Source: Isoetes taiwanensis (Eukaryota > Streptophyta > Lycopodiopsida > Isoetales > Isoetaceae). From it: a stretch of DNA of 64,000 nt. The stretch covers positions 10,480,109 through 10,544,108 of the forward strand of contig JAJEKV010000004.1 of the NCBI GenBank assembly GCA_021234155.1, written 5' to 3'. The notes under the pieces are model-generated. The model made no database searches. It saw only the letters and a list, made by a program, of their open reading frames with translations, and was not told the DNA's origin. Made by a program: the position numbers and the translations under genes. Below are positions 47,363 through 58,381 of the stretch, in pieces. Every line of letters starts with the position of its first letter. The stretch's first letter is position 1.

Positions 47363-49417
47363 GGGTAATTTGTGCCATGGACTAGCTAGCTCCATCAAGC
47401 TGGATGCCATTTTTGATATGGTGTTAAATGTTGTAGAGACCGCAAATTTTGAATCTGCTACTCTTGAGAAGGAAAACAGGCTTTGAGTCAGGGTTTAGTG
47501 ACAAAAAAAGGAAATTATTTTTATAGGTGCAATTGCTTCTCTTGGATTTTCCTTTTTTCTCGCCATCAGCACTAATAACAAGCACTAATAACGAATAAGG
47601 TATTGATAACAACCATGATATGTCATGAGAATCTGAGATAGCATGAGGACGATGCTGACCTTAAAATTATAGAGGAAAAGTATAAAAGGAGAAAAAGTCC
47701 TGTTAGATCCTCTTTTATGGCAAAGTTGATAAAATTAATCTTGTATGGTATTGCACCAACATAAGAGGGAGATGGGTCAAGGGTGGATTAAGCTAGCAGC
47801 AGGCAGGTTTTCCAAATTGTGGCCTTGACATTCTTATGCAATTGTGGCATTAAATGGTAAATGGTAAATGCCTTACATTGCTTTCGGAACAAATGGTGAT
47901 AAAATAAGCACTTAAACCAAGTCAAATTTTAGAAAAGGTGTTGCAGAAAGAACGAATAGAAACTATTACAGGGACGTTACTTTGTTCTTTGCTACTGCAT
48001 ACGTTTTACAGGAGGTTTAAAGATAGCCTTTTCATGGAGAGAAGGAAGTAGAAATAAAAGACTAACAGTTGTAGAGACTTAGTAGTGAAAAGTAGTTATG
48101 GATTACTAAGTTAGCCATGTTCGTTGCCGGTTATTTCTAAGAGCAAAATTTCCATAAGTACTCTAATATTTTACTTTTAAGGAGATGCTTTATAGGTGAA
48201 ACTTGTATTAAAAGTTGCTTGGATTTGACTCTGCATAACTCTTCGATCAAAAGACTAACCAGACTGAATATTGGATTCTAACATTATTGCGGCCATTAAG
48301 GATGACAAAAAAAAAAGGTTTCGAGACTATCGGTTCTTGACTTGGTCTTTTGTGTTAATATAAAAAACCCTATTGTTCAACCTTTGCAATAAGGACAAAT
48401 GTTAAATAACTCGTCACTAAAACTATATCATTCGCAACTAAGCTTTACATAAACTCTAAAGATCGTTTTTTATTTTGAAACTTCAATATATCAATCTAAT
48501 GGGAAATTAAATTTTACAATAGAGGGACAATCCTTTACAATAGAGGGACAATCCAAACCGTCTTCTGCGACTATAAGAATAGTATACACAAGCAAAAATT
48601 AAAGAGTCGTTATATATTAAGCTAGATAGAAAGGAAACTCTAGGTCGCCTAAAGAGTCGTTATATATTGAAAGGAAACTCTAGGTCGCCTTTGGTGCAAA
48701 TAGAGAAATTTGTCCTAGATAAAACATGTATTGTATATTTTGGAATAAATCAATAAATGGATATAGTGGCAAAAAGAAAGAAAAAGAAACTCTTTCCACC
48801 ACATTCTTTGCATAAATAAAGGGCGGCAAGTTTCCACAGCTTCCTCTTTTTCACAGCTTGTATTTTGTAGGTATCTTCATTCAAAGCCTATCTATAGGAT
48901 AACCATTGGGAAAAAAAAAAAACAACTGGCAACTCGCATATTAGACAAGATTTAAACAAGCGATGCATACTTGGCCAGAGTCTTTACTGTTCCATGATTT
49001 TATCAACAGCCTATTTTGGATTTGTCTTCACGGTCGGAGGCGAATCTTCTATGGATTCTTCAATGGAAATAACATCCATATGATCTACAAAATATTAGAC
49101 TTGCTTTTTTTTCTATTCATTGCACATTTTAAGTTTGCAAGAACACGAAGCTCTAGAATTTATATAAGGTCAACGCTACCAAGTGGACAAAAATTCCATT
49201 TGAAAGATAGCTAGATAGAATTAATGGCATGACTAAGGCAAGGCTAAGGCTACACGGCCGTGGGGACACTCACTTTTGATCTTTAAACACAACACTAAAC
49301 CCAAGGACAAGCTGAATTTTATAAGTACGTAAAAAACAGTTAAGAAGCATTCTGCTTTATCCTCTAATAGCGCGGCGCCACGTGGCATGTTTCAAATCCA
49401 AGAATGTTTCTGAAAAA
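47363..49417. other. No gene recognised
   Basis: The stretch is AT-rich. Small tandem duplications occur at 48519-48555 (TTTACAATAGAGGGACAATCC twice) and 48601-48690 (AAAGAGTCGTTATATATT...CTAGGTCGCC twice). No GTPase-domain exon matching the upstream RsgA-like exon was found. Confidence 0.6.
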
Positions 49418-49442
49418 GTAATACACGCCACCTTGGGATTAC
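49418..49442. repeat. Left terminal inverted repeat of the tyrosine-recombinase element
   Basis: This 25-bp repeat starts GTAATACACGCCACC and ends GGGATTAC; both ends read GTAAT/ATTAC, so each repeat is itself weakly palindromic, a shape common in tyrosine-recombinase core sites. Confidence 0.75.
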
Positions 49443-49519
49443 TGTTATTTTGCTCTCAAATTCTTTCTGATAATTTCATGTCAACCAGCATCTCAATTTT
49501 GCATAATATAATTTACAGG

Positions 49520-49640
49520 CAGATTATAAACACTGAAAGATTACAATATTACAGGATTACACTGAAGCTTTTCAACATTACACTGAAACATTCCAAGATT
49601 ACAAGATTACACAAACATTCCAAGATTACAAAAACAAAGT
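49520..49640. repeat. Left subterminal repeats (RATTACA)
   Basis: Seven copies of RATTACA-type motifs occur in about 100 bp, several as ATTCCAAGATTACA or ATTACACTGAA. The GATTAC core also ends the adjacent inverted repeat, so they may be recombinase-binding sites. Confidence 0.65.
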
Positions 49641-49699
49641 TAACTGCAAGGTTAACTCCAAAATTTGAAGGTTTATCCAAAACATTACAAAGAGTTTAT

Positions 49700-51767
49700 T
49701 CAAGATCGATTCTTATCCAAAGCATTACTGATCAGTCCTGCTAAAGCCTTGAGATCAACGCCACCAAAGTTGAAAGTGCAATTAGAAAACGTTCCTCGAT
49801 TGTTGATGACAGGACCAATAAACTTGCCAATTGCCTTTGCACTCTCGGGGTGCTCCTTGCTTAGAGTAGCATAGAAATCCTCATCAAATGGATCATCATC
49901 AATTTCAATACGGTTCGCGTTCACCATATGACTGTCTAATGCAACTGGCATCATTGCACAGTTTTTCGATTCCAATACAGAAACATCAGAATCCTTATTC
50001 TCCTTCCCAGAATCTTTTGCATCTACAACAGCTGGAATCAACAAAGAACTTCGACCGTAAAAGCAAGATTGCAATCAACCGTGCAAGAAAAGAACAAAGA
50101 TCTGTTATAGCAGAAGCTTGTTTACGCACTTCAGCTGCAAAACAAAACAAATAAATAAACAAAAGAAATAAACAAATAAATAAACAATTATAACTAGTTA
50201 CCTGCAAGGACATCTTTATACGATCGAGGTGAGCCATCTGGATTACATGGCTGTCCAATTATTTCCATACACGCATTGATTTTCGAATCGTCTGTTCTGT
50301 CATATCTGAAACAAAAAAACAGTGATCAATTGCAAAAGAACAGCAAAATAAAAATAAAAATAACTTACTTCAGGAACCCGTCTACGCTCTTATGTCCCGT
50401 AATTTGCATCCCAGCAACAGCAGGAACATCCGATGAAGCAAGACGTGTGACCAATGACACCCTACCAGACTTATTACAGATCTCTGTTTCAGGACTGACA
50501 ACAGAAGCCATCGTACGAAGCCACTTCCCAAGCGAATTAATACCAACAGGAGTAACTGCGTACCATACCTGCAATCCAGAAAGCATAAGTAAATTAACTA
50601 CAAAATTAATTGAAGAAATATGGTAATCTTACCATAGTTCTGTAATTATGGACCGGCTGAAGAAAGAAGTGACGCGTCTCATTATCCTTCTCTTTTGCAG
50701 GCAAATGACGGATATATTGCTTAAATGTAAGCACAAAATCTTTTTCATGTGTCCAAACTGGTTTTCTAAAGTGCTCATCATCATACTTGGTGATCGTAGG
50801 ACTATAATTCTTGCTAATCCTTTCCCCATATCTTACTAACTCCCCAAGCTCATCCTTATCCAAGCACATGTCACAATCTTTTACCTGATATAGCTCCTTC
50901 GATGCCCTGATACCAAATCTAGTTAACATGTAATAAACAAGACGTTTGATACAACCTGAAGGATGTGTTATTTGATGATCGATATCACACAGAATTTCCT
51001 TCTCAAGCTTGAACGTTATTACAGGAGCCTTTTTCTTCGCCTTATCGTAATTACCCTCCTTCCTTGACTTCTTCACCATACCAACAAAAGCCTCACGGCT
51101 CTGAGTAAACATCGCATCTGTCCTGATATTAAAAGGATGCTCACTAATGCTAGTCTCTCCAATTCTCTTCTCCTGCTCTCGTCTAACAATCCTGCCAACA
51201 GCTCTGAACAAAGAGCTAAGCCTACAATACAAAACCAGAAAACATAATAAATACTGGATTACAGTTAATGAAAACTTCAGAAAAAGATTAAACTTACGTG
51301 CCAGGTGGATAAAGCCTTCCATTTTTCTTCTTTGCCTATAAAATGAAAAGCAAGAAATCAGTAAAATTCCAGAAACAGAAAAAAAATTACAAAAAAAATT
51401 AAAAGGATAAAATTACCTGAATCAAGAACTTTGTAAGCATCTCGTTCAGAGTCTTCAAAGGCAGTTTCTCAATAGGAATATTAACCTGTTGTTTGAAATC
51501 CTTTCTCCACTGATCAAATCTGCGCCTAGCCCATGCATTAACTGACTTAGATCGATCTATTCCACCATTTAATGCCTCAGAAAGAACATCTTCATCGAGA
51601 GGCAGCCAATCATCCTTGGTGTCATATTCTTCACAATCACTACTGTTGTCATCAGATAACTGCGCTAATATTTCCTCAGTTTCTTCAACAGAAACAGGAT
51701 CATCACTCGTAAAATCTAGGGAACAGAGTGTAAATGATGGCTGTGAAGGGCCTGGAATTTCTGACAT
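49700..51767 (-). CDS. Tyrosine recombinase, Crypton/DUF3504-like, six exons, 537 residues
   Basis: Exons: 51417-51767, 51298-51335, 50633-51221, 50369-50568, 50202-50305, 49700-50031, all with GT-AG introns and matching phases. The N-terminus is acidic. Residues about 80-120 (W-A-R-R-R-F-D-Q-W) form a core-binding-like helical region. The catalytic domain shows R235 in R-F-G-I-R-A-S-K-E-L, a candidate Lys267, K359-x-x-R362 in place of H-x-x-R, H385 in I-T-G-H-K-S, and nucleophile Y394 in F-L-K-Y-D-R. R362 to H385 and H385 to Y394 match phage-integrase spacing exactly. The Y394 codon begins exon 5. The acidic C-terminal 110 residues have no recognised fold. An acceptor near 50135 could create a variant with a different C-terminus. 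Such enzymes cut and rejoin DNA through a 3'-phosphotyrosine link. It could be an active transposase or a domesticated relative. Confidence 0.7.
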
Positions 51768-51889
51768 TCTACTCAACAACAGAAAGACTATCAAAGAAAC
51801 ATTCATCTTCACTTCAAGAATGCTTATCAAAATCTCACACATACTCTGATTATAGCCCAAACTCTGCAAAGATCGCCTAAAGTGACCCA

Positions 51890-52320
51890 GAAACTAAAGA
51901 TCGGCTAAAGATAGGCCCAAACTCTGCAAAGATCGGCTAAAGGTCACAGAAACTAAAGATCGGCTAAAGATCAGCTAAAGGCCAGCAAATACTCGCTTTA
52001 CAAGTCGCAAGTTGCTTTAGGAGTCGCCACAGCCAACTTATCTACAGAAAACAGCAAGATAATCGCCAGAGCCAACAAATCCGTGCACTAGAAGTCGCCA
52101 AGATCACAACTAGAGTCGCCATACGACCAACTTATCTACGTAAAAGCAAGCAAGATAATCGCCAGCGCCAACAAATCCGTGCACTAGAAGTCGTCAAGAT
52201 CACAACTAGAAGTCGCCAAAATGCTTTACAAGTCGCCAAGATCCCAACCACAAGTCGCTATACCCAAATCATCAAACCTGTGCAGAAAACACTAAGATAA
52301 TCGCCAGCGCCATGGAAATA
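51890..52320. repeat. Right subterminal repeats upstream of the recombinase gene
   Basis: Next to the gene, AAAGATCGGCTAAAG-type units recur (51896-51985). Farther out, a unit of about 95 bp containing AAGATAATCGCCAG, CAAATCCGTGCACTAGAAGTCG and AGATCACAACTAGA is present twice (from about 52035 and 52130), with a third partial copy near 52292. The TCGCC core occurs over ten times. The region covers the probable 5' leader. Confidence 0.75.
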
Positions 52321-52466
52321 TTAACTAAAAACATGCACACAGACCTCTAGAATCCATTTCAGACGAAGCGCCAGCATTAGGAGAGCAAGCGCCATCACGG
52401 GAGCTCCGGCAACATCTCTGCATGCGCCATAGCCAGGAGCTCCGTCATCGAAAATGAAAAAAAAAA

Positions 52467-52476
52467 CTTTATAAAC
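52467..52476 (-). promoter_or_regulatory. TATA box candidate for the tyrosine-recombinase gene
   Basis: GTTTATAAAG on the minus strand lies just inside the right inverted repeat. Transcription from about 52440 would give a leader of some 670 nt, crossing the TCGCC repeats, before the ATG at 51767; that leader contains upstream ATGs, so a leader intron is likely. Confidence 0.4.
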
Positions 52477-52516
52477 CTTGCTGATGTGGCACCGACGTGG
52501 AGGACACGTCATGAAC

Positions 52517-52540
52517 GTAATCCCAGGTGGCGTGTATTAC
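52517..52540. repeat. Right terminal inverted repeat of the tyrosine-recombinase element
   Basis: GTAATCCCAGGTGGCG and following bases are the reverse complement of the left repeat with one base missing in the centre. Confidence 0.75.
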
Positions 52541-52544
52541 GCAC

Positions 52545-52636
52545 GGGAAAATGCCTCCACGAGATTTTTTTTAGGGGGATAATCCGGCTTCGGCGGCGCC
52601 GAAGCGGCCGGAAAACCGAAAGTGAGGCATTTTCCC
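52545..52636. repeat. 92-bp fold-back module abutting the right inverted repeat
   Basis: Perfect 13-bp arms (GGGAAAATGCCTC at 52545-52557, inverted at 52624-52636) enclose a GC-rich palindrome, CTTCGGCGGCGCCGAAG, near 52588. It starts four bases outside the inverted repeat. It may be a separate fold-back MITE or part of the larger element's end. Confidence 0.75.
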
Positions 52637-53103
52637 TTATACATTTTGTTCTGCGACGAGCTTCAAGAACGACTGTTCCGGCATTTCTATCCAGCATCCT
52701 CACGATTTACCCATCATTCCGGAGCTTTTACCATGCATTCCAAGAATCTACCAAGCATTCCAGACTTTTCACTTGCCGCAGAATGCTTCTTTATTACAAG
52801 AAAGGGGATCTACATGCCTTTCCTGTATACGTAAAGAGGGACTACTTTTTGCATGGTAAAGGCTACATTTAAGAAAGGCCTATCCTCCTACAATCTTGGT
52901 CATCAAAATGATCAGCAAATAAGAAGTGTGTATGACAGCATTGGAAGTGAGAAGTGAATAAAAAAATAGTATACATGTGGTAGTATACATGGTAAACGTA
53001 AAATTACAAACGTCGTGTGCTTAGCTTCCCAGTTTTTGGAAACTTGAATACTCTTATCATGCGTCGTTAAGTTTGTATAAAATGTTGTTGTTAGATCATA
53101 AGT

Positions 53104-55741
53104 TCAGCAAATTGATAAGCGCTCAGGGACACGAGGAGTTGCAATGACCATCAAAGGGTGGAGCTTATGGTTGGTCAAATAAACGGTGTCATGGAGTGAT
53201 TCCTTAGCGGGGTCGTGCGAGGGCAAGCTGAACTTAAAATGCTGCACAAAAGCTGCAAGTGTCAAGGGCACCATATACATGGCTTGAGTAATACCACCAC
53301 AGATTCTTTTTCCACCTCCAAAAGGCATAATTCTCATGTCAGTATATCCCATATCCAACTTCTCGTCCTTTAAAATCCTTAATGGATTCCATTCTTCTGG
53401 ATTCGTCCAAACCTTCTTATCGTGGTGTATTGCATGTATGTTCACAATTATCTGTCATCCAAAGCACGTCAATTACTTAGTTCAATCACTTACTTCAGGA
53501 ACTAGAATAGTGAATGCTTATGTAGTAATCTCAAGAAAAGCACTAACATTTGATCCTTTTGTAACAGTGTACCCGCCGAGTTCGACATCCTTGTGTACAA
53601 AACGTGGCGGTAGCATTGGTACTGGTGAGTATTTTCTCATTGTTTCCTTCACAACTGCCTTGAGAAAAGGAAGATTGGGTATATGGTCCTCTGTAACCAT
53701 CCGGCTACCAGCAACATCTTGGATTTCCTTGTAAACATGCTCCTGGAGTGAAGTTTGGTTAGCTTTCTTTTATTCCATTGTCTAAATTATTCACAGAATG
53801 ACAAAAGTAGACCTGAATATGGGGTTTCAATGCAAGCTCATAGAGTGCCCATTCTGTTGTTACTACAGTGGTATCAGAGCTTTCTATCAAAGGTTCCCAT
53901 ACCGACATGATTAGCTCATCCTCAGTTAGATGAGTATATTGTGTAAGCAAAATACTGCAATAGCAACTTGGAGAAACCTGCCAGCAAATAGCATGAGTTG
54001 TGTCTCTAAGAGAACAAACTGATTCCTATCATCAAACCTTTCCTTCTTCAAGTAGTTTCTTATGCTCGTCAATTAGGGCTCTTATTACTTGAGTTCTTCT
54101 GTGCTCTATCTTTTTCACATCCTCGACAAGTGTCTTATTGGGAATCCATTTCTTAATTGCTGGAAAAAAATCTCTCCAGTCAATCATTATAGCACCTTTC
54201 ATCATGTCATCCACAATGATCTGGGAAAGTTCCAGCCGCGTCATTCTTCCAACTTCAGGAAAATAGAAGTCATCAGGATCTCTTCCCATTATCTGTTCAC
54301 TAAAGAAGGTCACATGTCTGTATTGCTAAAATTTGTAGAAATATCTGGTGTGCATTAATAGAATATACCTGCTGCATTGCTAGGGAAAACATTATTCTGC
54401 TGATGTAGCTTCTAGCGTTGAGAGTTCCAGATGATTCCTGGAGACCTTCAAACATCATATCTAGAACTTTATTCAGCTGCGCCTCTCTCAGCTGCCGAAA
54501 TGATTTCTGCAATTGTATTATATTAAAAGAGGTGGTGCTATTAGAAAGAAATCATTGTCGAATACCTGTGGGATTTGACCAAGAAGGTTGTTTGTAACCA
54601 TCTTCCTGACATTCTTGTAAAAGTCTCCATAGTCTGACATTGCAACCATTGTTTTCTCCTTCGTAAGCAATGACAAGCTTGTTCCCAGCTCTCTGGTCGA
54701 AATTGACTCGTAATTGGTAACCAAAGCCTGTCTTTATCAGCATAATAAGTACAGATCAATAACTGGCAACAAAGTTAAGATGAAGACTATGAGTGCGCCA
54801 TTTTCCCTGGCAGTGATGTAGATCTATAAAATTCTTATGAGGGAGTTGTCAAAATATTTTCAGTAAATTCAGCTCATAGGTGCAGGGTGCTCTTGCATCA
54901 TCTAACGCTGCATGGAAGTTGGTTTTAGGACCGAGGATGAAGGGTGGTTAATCATCATATGCCATCAAACTTCTACAAATTACAAGCATATAGGCAGCAG
55001 ACAAGAAAACGCTGACAAAACAAATATATTAGCAACTACCTTTTTGAATTTTGTTGTGGGCATCCCAAACCATTTAAAAGTCAGATTAGAGAAAGCAGTC
55101 TGACTTCCTACTTAGGTATGATCCTTACAATGATTCAAAATTTTAGAGTGGCTCAATTTCGATAATCTGCCCATTACATAGTAATGCTTTGAGGTTCATG
55201 AATATTTGTTTCAAGATAAAATATGGCAAAAGTACATGCATAGTTTACATTAAAATTTTTTGACATCTATTGCAACATAACAAGAAGAATAGCGGTCCAA
55301 TAGCAGGAATAGATATAGCAAGCTATAGAATAGCGCATTGGTATATACCTCCTTGGCAACATCCGAGGAATTGATGATGACTTGTGTTGTCATTCCTGCA
55401 TGGATTCTATAGATAGGCCCATATTTTTCACTTAGTAATGTGAAGTAGTGGTGCGGTTTCTTACCTATCAGCTGTAGCAGGTTTCCAATAATTGGGAGAC
55501 CTGGCACAGCTGCATTTGGAAGAATGAAGAAAAATAAGCTCGGACAACTCAAGGAGGAAACATACGCTTAGTTTGGCAATTCACATAGCTTACCTGGAGG
55601 GAGTTTTCCTTTTTTCCTTTTCATCAGAACTACTAGCAGTAACAGCCATCCCAATCCGAATGCCAAAAGGGTAGAAAGAGCAGTTTCAAACTTGAACTTT
55701 CTGCTGAATATAGCTTCTGTATTTGATGTAAAACTACCCAT
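53104..55741 (-). CDS. ent-Kaurene oxidase (CYP701 cytochrome P450), eight exons, 523 residues
   Basis: Exons: 55594-55741, 55349-55509, 54566-54727, 54369-54506, 54038-54292, 53813-53977, 53548-53742, 53104-53451; all introns are GT-AG and phases agree. The enzyme oxidises ent-kaurene stepwise to ent-kaurenoic acid for gibberellin synthesis, held in plastid envelope or ER membrane by its N-terminal anchor (L-A-F-G-L-G-W-L-L-L, residues about 28-40). Then come the basic/proline hinge K-L-P-P, I-helix S-D-T-T, K-helix E-T-M-R and heme loop P-F-G-G-G-K-R-I-C-G-G. Motifs such as A-M/L-x-Q-x-M-G-R-D and W-I-P-N-K are KO-like. The PERF motif reads P-L-R-I, keeping only the Arg. I chose the ATG at 55741; an in-frame codon at 55834 would add 31 residues ahead of the membrane anchor. 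It appears intact. CYP701 fits best; another P450 in that clade is possible. Confidence 0.85.
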
Positions 55742-55834
55742 AGCTGAGGAAATGTTGCCAGATCGTACTGATACTTTACTCTGTAAACGAAGCCAAAAAG
55801 TGGATCGTGTATGTGCCGTTCTGTTCATAATCAA

Positions 55835-58381
55835 AGAAGTGAGGACTCAAAATGCAATTTGAAAAAAAAAAAAGGAACTGGCCATTCGCATTTTGATTCT
55901 GATGCTTATACAGGAAAAAAACCTGCAAAATTACATTTTGGGTTTGCTCAGGGGTTGCAAATGTAAAGCTTCATCCGTGGAGTGATCGACCAAAATGAAC
56001 CTAATGTACAAAAATGACACAGTAATAAAAATATAAAATTCTCGAGTGCAGGACGAGCAAAAGGACATACCCATAAGTTGCACTGCGTTGGAGAGCGTCC
56101 ATAGCATTTGAAGTATGGCCATCGAATGCATTATAAGAATCTCGGTAGGGTACCACCTTTAGAATGGTGCTCTTTGTTTTTCGATAAAGTTGATGGCGTT
56201 GGCGTGTCGAAATATCTTCTGAAAAGAACTGACAGAACCAGAAATGGAAGTCTTTTCATATGCAAACTGCAATCCCACAATATTCTTATTTTATTTTTAG
56301 CAGGCTTGCCTAACCCTCTACAACAATTTGCTGAAATTCTAGCCTATCAAGTTGCACTCCAGCTCATCTACTTTCGATTTCTGCCGTTACATCTACATCT
56401 ATGGCCAAGAAATTTAGAAAATCTAAGAAAATTGTCCCCTGCCATATCCTTATCCTTCGATCTCTTTTCTTTCTTTCCTCTTTTTTCTTTCCTTTGTTGG
56501 GCTTCACAATTGGCCATAGTCATGGAGTTACTCACTCTACTCGTTTTTTTCTTTCTCCTTCTTGCTCGTTTCTTGCGGGTATGTGGTTGGCTTCTAAGGC
56601 AGCAATATAGGTATTAAGGCCTTTTTTTTGAACACCCAGTTCTTAAATGTTTAACCATCTGCATCTTTCAAGATCAAGCTCTGTGTTCCATTTACTCATC
56701 CAGAGAAGCTTTTCTTCTATTCTGTTCTTTTGGGTTTGAGGTTTCCTTCCGAATTTATCTATAAAGATTATGGTCGAAATTCTTGGCTGATCATACACAT
56801 TTTGGAATTTGGGGGTGTGGCTTCTTACAGATTCTTTGGCATGCCTTTGTGGACGAATCATATAACATAAACTATGTGCACATCATGCTCAGAGGCTGAA
56901 GCTGCAGGGTCAAACAAACGAGACTCCCAAGCTCAGTGATGCAAAAGTCTTCATCTATGCTTTTCATGTATCCTAACTCAACCCATCTTTTCTCACTTGG
57001 TCTCAGTGGATAAAAAAGATCAATTCAATTGTCCTACATTCTATTCCTTCAAACCTCTTGGCCTATCCATCACCCCAAACCTGCCTTACTGCTAGTTGTT
57101 TTGTTTCGGGCAGTAAAATATCCAGGCTTAATATCATGTTGGTTCTGCTGATTCAATAGTTTCTGAATTATCATTTGCATTAATAATCTCTACAGAGCAT
57201 AAGAGATGGATGGTACTGGTATAGCACAGTTGGCCTAAAAGTTCTAAATTTCTTTTGAAGTTAAATGCTACTAATTTGACATTGTACATTGCCACTTCAT
57301 AGCTCTATGGTACATAATGGACATAACTAAAATAATTTCATTTCTATCATCCTCGACGATAATAGCTTGCTTCCATTTTGCACATCAAATCGAATTTATG
57401 TTCATCAACGCTAGAGCACTTCCTTGGGTTCACAAACAGTGCATGTGCAACATGTCAACAATGGCTTTTATTCAGCCATCATTAACATACAAAATGTTGC
57501 TATAAACTTTTGGGGATTCCCGAATCATGTGCTATTTAACTAATGCATTCTGCTTCATAGAAGAGCCTGGGGTAACCATTATGCATAAGCAACCCTTTTT
57601 TCCTTGCAAGGGATACTGTGTGCTCCTCCCAGCACCTTCAAAGACCTGCCTTACAAAAACATCCTTGTTTGATTCCATGGGTGGCACATATTGACCCAAG
57701 ATGTCACCATCCTATTAAGCAAAAAAACAATGGATGACACTCAAAATTCACTTCGCATATGCGAAAATCAACTTGGTAAGACCATCCTACCCCTGGACAT
57801 CGTTGCTCTATATAATGGCTCTTACTGGGATGCATTGATGCATTTCTTTAGCTTGGAAAAGGAAGCAAGCCCCTAAAATGTGTAGTAAATATGGCAATAA
57901 GTTGTATTGTATTCAAAGTTTATAAATTTGCACGTGGCAACTACTTTGGTGGTAGTTAAGTGTGGAGGAACATTGGCTTACAAAAGAACGCTTGGTATAG
58001 ATTGACAATAGTATGTGCAACATATTACAAAAGTGGCATTTAGATTTTTTACTACAATTTTAAAGCCCCTTATTGGTATTTGAATAAATTTTTTGACTAT
58101 TCAATGGTCAAATAGGACTTTGTATCATATGTTTTTGTAGACATTCATTTAAAATGTGCATTTGATCCCCTTTTTTTTTTGTTAATGGGTAATGTTTTAC
58201 TCAATGGTTGTTATGCAGGTTATTAAGTTGCAATGAACCCAATTCTTACGTAGGTTATTAAGCAAGTGTCAAACATCGCAAACATAAGTACAACTTTTAG
58301 GCATCCATAGTCATTTTGTATGTGGGTTGAGTTTCATCTTGGAATTCCTTGAAAAACATCTATATGGCTTGGTTGCATATT
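55835..58381. other. No gene recognised; upstream region of the P450 gene
   Basis: The first few hundred bases presumably hold the ent-kaurene oxidase promoter and leader; I see no clear TATA box at the expected distance. ORFs on the plus strand at 56108-56617 are hydrophobic and pyrimidine-driven, without homology I recognise. The rest is AT-rich. Confidence 0.55.

What the first reader, a model, noticed from the sequence alone, without database searches (positions are those of the whole stretch)
49418..52540. Tyrosine-recombinase transposon bounded by terminal inverted repeats in a plant genome
Seen: 24-25 bp inverted repeats 3.1 kb apart enclosing a single intron-containing gene whose product has R235, K359-x-x-R362, H385 and Y394 at exact phage-integrase spacing. 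Known: Crypton-type elements carry such recombinases (DUF3504-like) and are described mainly from fungi, oomycetes, algae and animals, usually without inverted repeats; fungal Starships are another recombinase-mobilised class. Inference: this is a distinct, possibly undescribed class of plant mobile element, or a captured recombinase now spread as a TIR element.
Basis: partly seen in the sequence, partly recalled or inferred. Interest (0 to 1): 0.92.

Follow-up and report, generated by a model that had tools for sequence, protein, structure and literature searches.

The report
Plant recombinase transposon with foldable ends
In the genome of what is most likely a quillwort, a family of jumping genes carries a phage-integrase-like enzyme and has ends that, once joined on one DNA strand, are predicted to fold into a hairpin like the recombination sites of bacterial integrons, a way of moving that our paper searches did not find described in plants or other eukaryotes.

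Summary
The finding is real, but its right boundary is wrong. The inverted repeats (49418-49442, 52517-52540) and the six-exon, 537-aa tyrosine recombinase (R235, K359, R362, H385, Y394) are confirmed. Many copies share the left end. On the right they continue about 100 bp past the repeat into a terminal hairpin ending TTATAC (52642), complete in 27 of 41 sequences. Empty sites for 4 insertions, the window's included, show that exactly GTAAT...TTATAC was inserted: no target duplication, no extra bases, no deletion. Recombinase dN/dS between subfamilies is 0.08-0.12. Hairpin arms co-vary within copies, as do the two repeats. With the ends joined on one strand, 18 of 18 copies are predicted to fold into one stem: paired repeats, a small loop beside the joint, then the hairpin. 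Two further families share the layout with other repeats. My reading: a Crypton-like transposon whose joined ends form an integron attC-like folded site. That mechanism is inferred, not shown. Host most likely Isoetes taiwanensis. Nine open-access literature searches listed no plant Crypton family and no such ends; Repbase was not searched.

The parts
49418..52642 (-). whole element (3225 bp); the gene runs on the minus strand
   Evidence: shared ends across copies; empty sites of this very insertion: 8 of 30 spanning matches were fetched and aligned, none has a gap at the junction
49418..49442 (+). left end, inverted repeat L: GTAATACACGCCACCTTGGGATTAC
52517..52540 (+). right subterminal inverted repeat R1: GTAATCCCAGGTGGCGTGTATTAC
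52541..52544 (+). GCAC, 5' side of the predicted internal loop
52545..52636 (+). terminal hairpin (GGGAAAATGCC...GGCATTTTCCC with a variable middle); damaged in the window copy, about 45 pairs and nearly perfect in L018 and L019
52637..52642 (+). right terminus TTATAC; insertion joint after the C
51417..51767 (-). recombinase exon 1
51298..51335 (-). recombinase exon 2
50633..51221 (-). recombinase exon 3 (holds R235; DUF3504-like stretch begins)
50369..50568 (-). recombinase exon 4 (K359, R362, H385)
50202..50305 (-). recombinase exon 5 (Y394)
49700..50031 (-). recombinase exon 6 (C-terminal FSNCTFNFGG region) and stop
52467..52477 (-). TATA-like motif (GGTTTATAAAG on the minus strand), about 40 bp inside R1; candidate promoter
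   Evidence: read by eye; not tested

Best explanation
This is a copy, with an open recombinase frame, of a tyrosine-recombinase DNA transposon family in a plant, most likely the quillwort Isoetes taiwanensis. SHOWN from sequence: exact ends GTAAT...TTATAC; insertion with no target duplication, loss or extra bases; a recombinase gene under selection; a left inverted repeat matched by a right subterminal one; a terminal hairpin whose arms co-vary. PREDICTED by folding: on one strand, the joined ends form a single long stem in which the two inverted repeats pair (outer stem), a small internal loop (CAC on one side, TTATA on the other) follows, and the terminal hairpin continues the stem; the joint TTATAC^GTAAT lies at the edge of the loop. 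INFERRED: the recombinase excises or copies out a single-stranded circle, recognises this folded site by structure (as integron integrases recognise attC), and joins it at TTATAC^GTAAT to a loosely chosen double-stranded target (C|RTAAW preferred). One strand is exchanged and replication resolves the product, which would explain the exact, duplication-free insertions. Recognition, strandedness and circles have not been observed.
For: Copies and ends. Empty sites for 4 of 12 joined-flank queries: L019 (4 of 4 spanning matches aligned), L009 (6 of 26), window (8 of 30), L027 (1 of 1). No length change at the junction, except that 2 of the 4 L019 empty sites lack one A in an A-run just to the right. 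Recombinase: dN/dS 0.08-0.12 between the window copy and 8 copies of the diverged subfamily; L017 has no stop or frameshift in the window's exon frame, 82% aa, all five residues; DUF3504 E=7e-4 over 218-346 and phrog_1 integrase E=0.0013 over 322-422 together span the catalytic domain. Hairpin arms: identity within a copy 0.825 against 0.714 permuted, 0 of 2000 reach it, n=27 of 41 sequences. L against R1: 0.936 against 0.900, 0 of 5000, n=18 of 41. Joined fold: 18 of 18 copies with 22-24 outer pairs, the first element base after the joint paired in 17 of 18; control joins 0 of 180 reach 18 pairs. Families B and C share the layout with different outer repeats. The distance from R1 to the right end runs from 97 to 204 nt, so the repeats reach a constant geometry only if it folds. 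Positions 1-5 of the left end read GTAAT in 22 of 23 left ends caught by an inner anchor, although targets there mostly read ATAAW, so no 6-8 bp overlap is seen converted.
Against: No circle, transcript, protein or reaction was observed. Co-varying hairpin arms can also come from hairpin repair or template switching without selection for recombination. The permutation tests ignore relatedness, and the 27 include at least one duplicated locus (L042/L043). Ends were found by similarity to the consensus, so the L-R1 pairing is partly favoured by the choice of copies; 14 of 41 sequences lack a recognised complete right end, and L011 and L020 lose it part-way. Outside the anchored set L020 and L024 (same flank, taken as one duplicated insertion) begin ATAAT and L011 is degraded: an A there could be a target base. 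Both Pfam matches lie below Pfam's curated cut-off, and KxxR stands where HxxR is usual in tyrosine recombinases (recalled). Closer pairs of copies show weaker constraint: dN/dS 0.35 for window-L009, 0.28 for window-L012 and up to 0.64 within the other subfamily. Of 16 other copies only 11 keep R235. The integron-specific I2 insertion was not looked for. The window copy's own hairpin is damaged. The only structure prediction attempted (exon 3 alone) was useless (pLDDT 33).
Confidence: 0.58

Rival explanations
1. Ordinary Crypton: double-stranded circle, integration by two-strand exchange at a short core (about 6 bp, CRTAAT) shared by element and target; repeats and hairpin are binding or regulatory sites.
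For: Single tyrosine-recombinase gene, no TSD; the right flank prefers RTAAW, like the left end GTAAT, and C stands at -1 in 18 of 26 left flanks. Cryptons have 4-6 bp terminal direct repeats (PMC3212892, passages). L020/L024 begin ATAAT, which could be a target base.
Against: The window copy entered AAAAA|ATTTT, which agrees with TATAC|GTAAT at 4 of 10 positions and at neither base next to the cut. Left ends stay GTAAT (22 of 23 anchored), and the right flanks keep the target bases as in the empty sites, so no overlap of more than about one base is seen. Does not explain the hairpin.
Confidence: 0.22
2. Double-stranded lox-like site: in the circle the hairpin is extruded as a cruciform, bringing R1 and L together as the two arms of a normal recombinase site; both strands exchange.
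For: Same geometry as the folded strand; uses canonical enzymology.
Against: A staggered two-strand exchange should leave mixed overlap bases, not seen in the 4 insertions with empty sites or in 22 of 23 anchored left ends.
Confidence: 0.12
3. Rolling-circle or HUH-type mobility (Helitron-like): 3' hairpin, no TSD; the recombinase is passenger or helper.
For: A hairpin near the 3' end and insertion without TSD are Helitron-like (recalled; a passage of PMC4455052, mentions a terminal hairpin in Helitrons).
Against: Apart from the recombinase exons no open frame of more than about 130 aa lies in the window element (these frames were not searched against profiles), too short for a Rep/helicase; the recombinase is under purifying selection; the ends are not TC...CTRR with A|T insertion (recalled rule).
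Confidence: 0.05
4. Standard TIR transposon of DDE type that captured a recombinase gene.
For: Inverted repeats of 24-25 bp.
Against: No TSD in 4 of 4 insertions with empty sites; the right repeat is subterminal; no long second open frame.
Confidence: 0.02

Closest known systems
Cryptons (CryptonA/F/I/S, CryptonV)
   Same: DNA transposons whose mobility enzyme is a tyrosine recombinase; DUF3504 is Crypton-derived (PMC3212892: abstract, sections 5, 8 and 17 and passages read); weak DUF3504 match here.
   Different: Reported from fungi, animals and stramenopiles (PMC3212892 Table 1), with short direct repeats or no terminal repeats; the one with 16-bp TIRs there, MarCry-1_FO, is a fusion with a Mariner. 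Here: land plant, inverted repeats, terminal hairpin, exact insertion without a required shared core.
Bacterial integron cassettes and attC sites
   Same: Tyrosine recombinase; folded single-strand site; replicative resolution (PMC3053210 and PMC4792948, passages read; [quoted passage not shown]
   Different: Here a eukaryotic transposon carrying its own recombinase; the site forms only when the two ends are joined; no attI known; the integron I2 domain was not looked for.
SE elements (strand-biased circularising integrative elements, Vibrio)
   Same: Tyrosine recombinases, terminal imperfect inverted repeats, a circular copy of one strand (PMC9345347, passages read).
   Different: SEs take 6 bp of flanking DNA into the circle; here no extra bases are inserted. 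Bacterial, larger, cargo-bearing.
IS200/IS605 and Helitrons
   Same: Subterminal hairpins and insertion without TSD (recalled).
   Different: HUH enzymes (recalled); none recognised here.
DIRS-like retrotransposons
   Same: Tyrosine recombinase plus, in some, inverted repeats (PMC4157794, passages).
   Different: They encode reverse transcriptase; no frame long enough here. A land-plant TE review (PMC9033089, passages read) says DIRS elements have been found only in green algae and does not mention Cryptons.

Membership tests
Crypton | tyrosine recombinase with catalytic R, H/K-x-x-R, H, Y | tested here: met
   R235, K359, R362, H385, Y394 in the window. Among 16 other copies: R235 in 11, K359 in 14, R362 in 15, H385 in 16, Y394 in 14 (L040 lacks most of the gene). 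K replaces the usual first H.
Crypton | sequence relation to Crypton/DUF3504 recombinases | tested here: inconclusive
   PF12012 E=7e-4, 20.1 bits against a cut-off of 29.7; 17.2 bits for L017; no phylogeny made.
Crypton | DNA transposon without RT or DDE enzyme | tested here: met
   by frame length: no other open frame above about 130 aa in the window element; other frames were not searched against profiles.
Crypton | 4-6 bp terminal direct repeats as crossover core | tested here: not met
   only an RTAAW preference at the right flank; the window insertion at AAAAA|ATTTT lacks it. Animal Cryptons are reported without terminal repeats, so the feature does not hold for all groups.
Crypton | no terminal inverted repeats | tested here: not met
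   24-25 bp inverted repeat, co-varying between ends.
integron-type recombination | recombination site formed by a folded single strand with structure conserved over sequence | tested here: inconclusive
   predicted fold in 18 of 18 copies and in one locus of each of two further families, arms co-vary; no biochemical proof.
integron-type recombination | one-strand exchange with replicative resolution | not testable with these tools
   exact TSD-free junctions agree with it.
integron-type recombination | I2 insertion domain of the integrase | not tested
   no usable model of the protein.
DDE TIR transposon | target-site duplication | tested here: not met
   4 of 4 insertions with empty sites.
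DIRS | reverse transcriptase in the element | tested here: not met
   by frame length only.

The most novel reading that the evidence does not exclude
A eukaryotic transposon class that moves as a single-stranded circle, with a tyrosine recombinase acting on an attC-like site formed only when its two ends are joined: integron-type recombination outside bacteria, shared by several element families in a lycophyte.
Probability: 0.45. Interest if true: 0.95.

Novelty: new variant of a known kind. Interest (0 to 1): 0.86.

Why it matters
In the papers that my searches listed, tyrosine-recombinase DNA transposon families are not described from land plants, and recombination of folded single strands appears only for bacterial integrons. 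Here a family with an open window copy and a second copy free of stops and frameshifts, exact ends, many empty sites and a ready folded-site hypothesis makes both points directly testable, and may offer a eukaryotic recombinase that inserts without scars and with loose target choice.

Tried and rejected
Ordinary TIR transposon: rejected (no TSD, right repeat subterminal). Boundaries at 49418 and 52540: left kept, right rejected. The hairpin as an unrelated MITE next to the element: rejected, because it follows R1 in copies with unrelated flanks and is absent from the empty sites. Bacterial or viral relatives: no protein match up to E=10 among the candidates scored in the large protein collection (7997, 87), no clear solved structure (one weak match each, E 0.28 and 0.99), no exact match to the end pattern in viral contigs. 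Structure prediction of exon 3 alone: pLDDT 33, not used. Host contamination: judged unlikely, because the element lies on a 31.8-Mb contig next to frames that read, by eye, as an intron-bearing plant-type cytochrome P450. Other recombinase families or DUF3504 genes of the host: searches did not complete.

Row counts and dropped rows: 40 fetched loci plus the window, 41 sequences, were oriented. Left flanks 27, 26 after duplicates were removed, and right flanks 26, 25 after duplicates; sequences whose ends did not match the search words were left out. Hairpin test 27 of 41. L-R1 and joined-fold tests 18 of 41. Empty-site queries: 12 joined flanks sent of 15 prepared (L021, L025 and L026 not sent); 8 of the 12 (L010, L017, L018, L031, L032, L036, L047, L049) gave no spanning match, which says little, since only 40 candidates were scored per query (of 130 and 627) and repeats filled the lists. 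In the recombinase comparison 16 other copies were read (L013 and L014 dropped for length) and insertions relative to the window were ignored; 11 of the 16 carry stops, 4 (L009, L015, L023, L044) have frameshift-type differences without stops, and L017 alone shows neither; its stop codon was not traced beyond the aligned end.

Full report
WHAT IS THERE. The gene is on the minus strand: exons 51767-51417, 51335-51298, 51221-50633, 50568-50369, 50305-50202 and 50031-49700, an open frame of 537 aa. The splices are predicted, not tested. Weak profile matches cover the catalytic domain in two overlapping pieces: DUF3504 at 218-346 (E=7e-4, below Pfam's cut-off) and a phage integrase family at 322-422 (E=0.0013).

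HOST. The window lies in an assembly of 1,658,258,908 bases in 1110 contigs. The Isoetes taiwanensis paper (PMC8566536, passages read) gives 1658.30 Mb in 204 scaffolds plus 909 contigs, and its main text does not hold the word Crypton. The identification rests on this near match (1110 against 1113 pieces) and is an inference.

COPIES AND TRUE ENDS. A search with 1501 bases of the left part gave 56 matches (40 of 165 candidates scored, so a lower bound); besides the window, 17 begin at exactly base 49418. The right end gave 40 matches (40 of 52 candidates scored). Forty loci were fetched in two rounds and oriented together with the window, 41 sequences. Apart from duplicated loci (L020/L024, L027/L033), left flanks differ right up to GTAAT. 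On the right the copies continue past the inverted repeat with GCAC, a long hairpin and TTATAC, and then diverge; L011 and L020 lose the hairpin part-way. A complete right end was recognised in 27 of 41. Eight full copies measure 3139-3490 bp and nine deleted ones 796-1351 bp; one locus has 142 bp between recognised ends.

EMPTY SITES. Left and right flanks were joined for 12 copies and searched against the genome. Four have spanning matches. For L019 all 4, for L009 6 of 26, for the window copy 8 of 30 and for L027 its single match were aligned. In each the filled site differs from the empty one at the junction by exactly GTAAT...(T/A)ATAC; two of the four L019 empty sites lack one A in an A-run just to the right, and further away there are small differences. 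The window insertion is the clearest: CTGAAAAA|ATTTTG, where the base on either side differs from the element base that would allow the cut to slide. There is no target duplication, no loss and no extra base. That 8 of the 12 queries gave no spanning match says little, because only 40 candidates were scored per query.

THE GENE IS USED. Between the window copy and eight copies of the diverged subfamily (L015, L016, L017, L018, L019, L021, L023, L044) dN/dS is 0.08-0.12 over 530-537 codons. Closer pairs show less constraint (0.35 for window-L009, 0.28 for window-L012, up to 0.64 within the other subfamily), as expected if single copies decay while the active lineage is kept. L017 has no stop or frameshift in the window's exon frame, with in-frame insertions, at 82% aa. 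Many other copies have stops, frameshift-type differences or changed catalytic residues: of 16 other copies, R235 is kept in 11, K359 in 14, R362 in 15, H385 in 16 and Y394 in 14.

ENDS THAT FOLD. In the 27 copies with a recognised right end, the two arms of the terminal hairpin are 0.825 identical within a copy, against 0.714 when arms are exchanged between copies (0 of 2000 permutations reach it). L018 and L019 have nearly perfect stems of about 45 pairs with different sequence. The left repeat and its right partner also match better within copies than between (0.936 against 0.900, 0 of 5000, n=18). These tests do not allow for relatedness. If the right end is joined to the left end on one strand, as in a circle, the 18 copies with both ends fold with 22-24 pairs between the repeats, and in 17 of 18 the base after the joint is the first one paired. 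Joining other 27-base pieces of the same elements never reached 18 pairs (0 of 180, highest 14). The result is one stem: repeats paired, a small asymmetric loop (CAC / TTATA), then the hairpin with a variable tip. The joint sits at the loop. The distance from the right repeat to the joint varies from 97 to 204 bases, so a fixed geometry exists only in the folded form.

OTHER FAMILIES. A search with the hairpin alone gave 89 matches, many of them both strands of one palindrome (40 of 43 candidates scored). Eight loci outside the family were read: five (B) and three (C) have quite different sequence left of ATTAC, yet nearly the same GCAC and first hairpin arm. The terminus was found in 5 of 8 (TTATAC in L063, L065, L067, L068; TTATAT in L062) and not in L061, L064 and L066. 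For one B and one C locus the left end was found; they are elements of about 0.73 and 0.90 kb without a recombinase-like stretch, with their own inverted repeats, and their joined ends fold the same way, B with a shorter, interrupted outer stem. Outer sequences differ, the design stays.

MECHANISM. The tyrosine-recombinase chemistry follows from the family. The exact junctions speak against the usual staggered exchange with a 6-8 bp overlap: targets have mostly A at +1 (17 of 25) where the element has G, yet left ends read GTAAT in 22 of 23 anchored cases, and the right flanks keep the target bases. Against this stand L020/L024, which begin ATAAT, and the degraded L011. Elements of the Tn916 type, which carry foreign coupling bases (recalled), and the Vibrio SE elements, which take up 6 bp (PMC9345347, passages), would have left extra bases; none are seen in the four insertions. 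Integron cassettes do what is seen here: a folded single strand, one-strand exchange, replicative resolution (PMC3053210 and PMC4792948, passages). I therefore favour an attC-like site formed by joined ends. Not shown: circles, strandedness, binding, catalysis. Arms may also co-vary because hairpins repair themselves.

NOVELTY. Kojima and Jurka 2011 (PMC3212892, abstract, three sections and passages) list Cryptons in fungi, animals and stramenopiles without inverted repeats, apart from a Mariner fusion. CryptonV appears as a group from cnidarians (a reference title) with some families specific for microsatellites (PMC8869645, passages). A land-plant TE review does not name Cryptons (PMC9033089, passages); another names them as a subclass in general (PMC11630846, passages). 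Repeat tables of two flowering plants list small amounts labelled Crypton, up to 0.05% of a genome. Nine searches of the open-access library showed, in the rows listed, no plant Crypton family, no Crypton with such a hairpin and no integron-like eukaryotic element. Repbase and most subscription journals were not searched, so a catalogued family may exist. Filed as a new variant of tyrosine-recombinase DNA transposons. Crypton membership is not claimed, because two features were tested and not met.

Noticed in passing
window 49342-52791: The element sits inside a short repeat whose own 14-bp ends (AAGAAGCATTCTGC / GCAGAATGCTTCTT, perfect inverted pair) would lie about 225 bp apart without it; 30 matches without the insertion span the joined flanks.
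   Followed up: partly
L048 3903-3927 (oriented): The right end of one element directly abuts the left end of another (TTATACGTAATACACG): tandem insertion or head-to-tail product.
   Followed up: no
L041 3862-3974 and L039 4026-4068 (oriented): Duplicated right termini, in L041 with the same start of flank after each: tandem duplication at the hairpin.
   Followed up: no
L017 3670, L018 3651, L041 3388; L019 1133, L023 1136, L044 1021, L049 2944 (oriented): Internal stretches resembling a right terminus (GTTTCCCTTATAC), with the same neighbours within each group: possible traces of captured older ends.
   Followed up: no
L009, L026, L027 right ends: A 2x2 mismatch about 15 bp into the hairpin stem in the folds (similar letters in the arms of several others), absent in L018 and L019; it might mark strand or orientation like extrahelical bases.
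   Followed up: no
window 52021-52218: Imperfect tandem repeats of about 96 bp in the presumed 5' leader of the recombinase gene.
   Followed up: no
window 53104-55846: Frames on the minus strand that read, by eye, as a plant-type cytochrome P450, perhaps ent-kaurene oxidase (recalled), about 0.5 kb right of the element.
   Followed up: no
window 11700-36600: Dense Copia- and Gypsy-like retrotransposon reading frames by eye, some duplicated.
   Followed up: no
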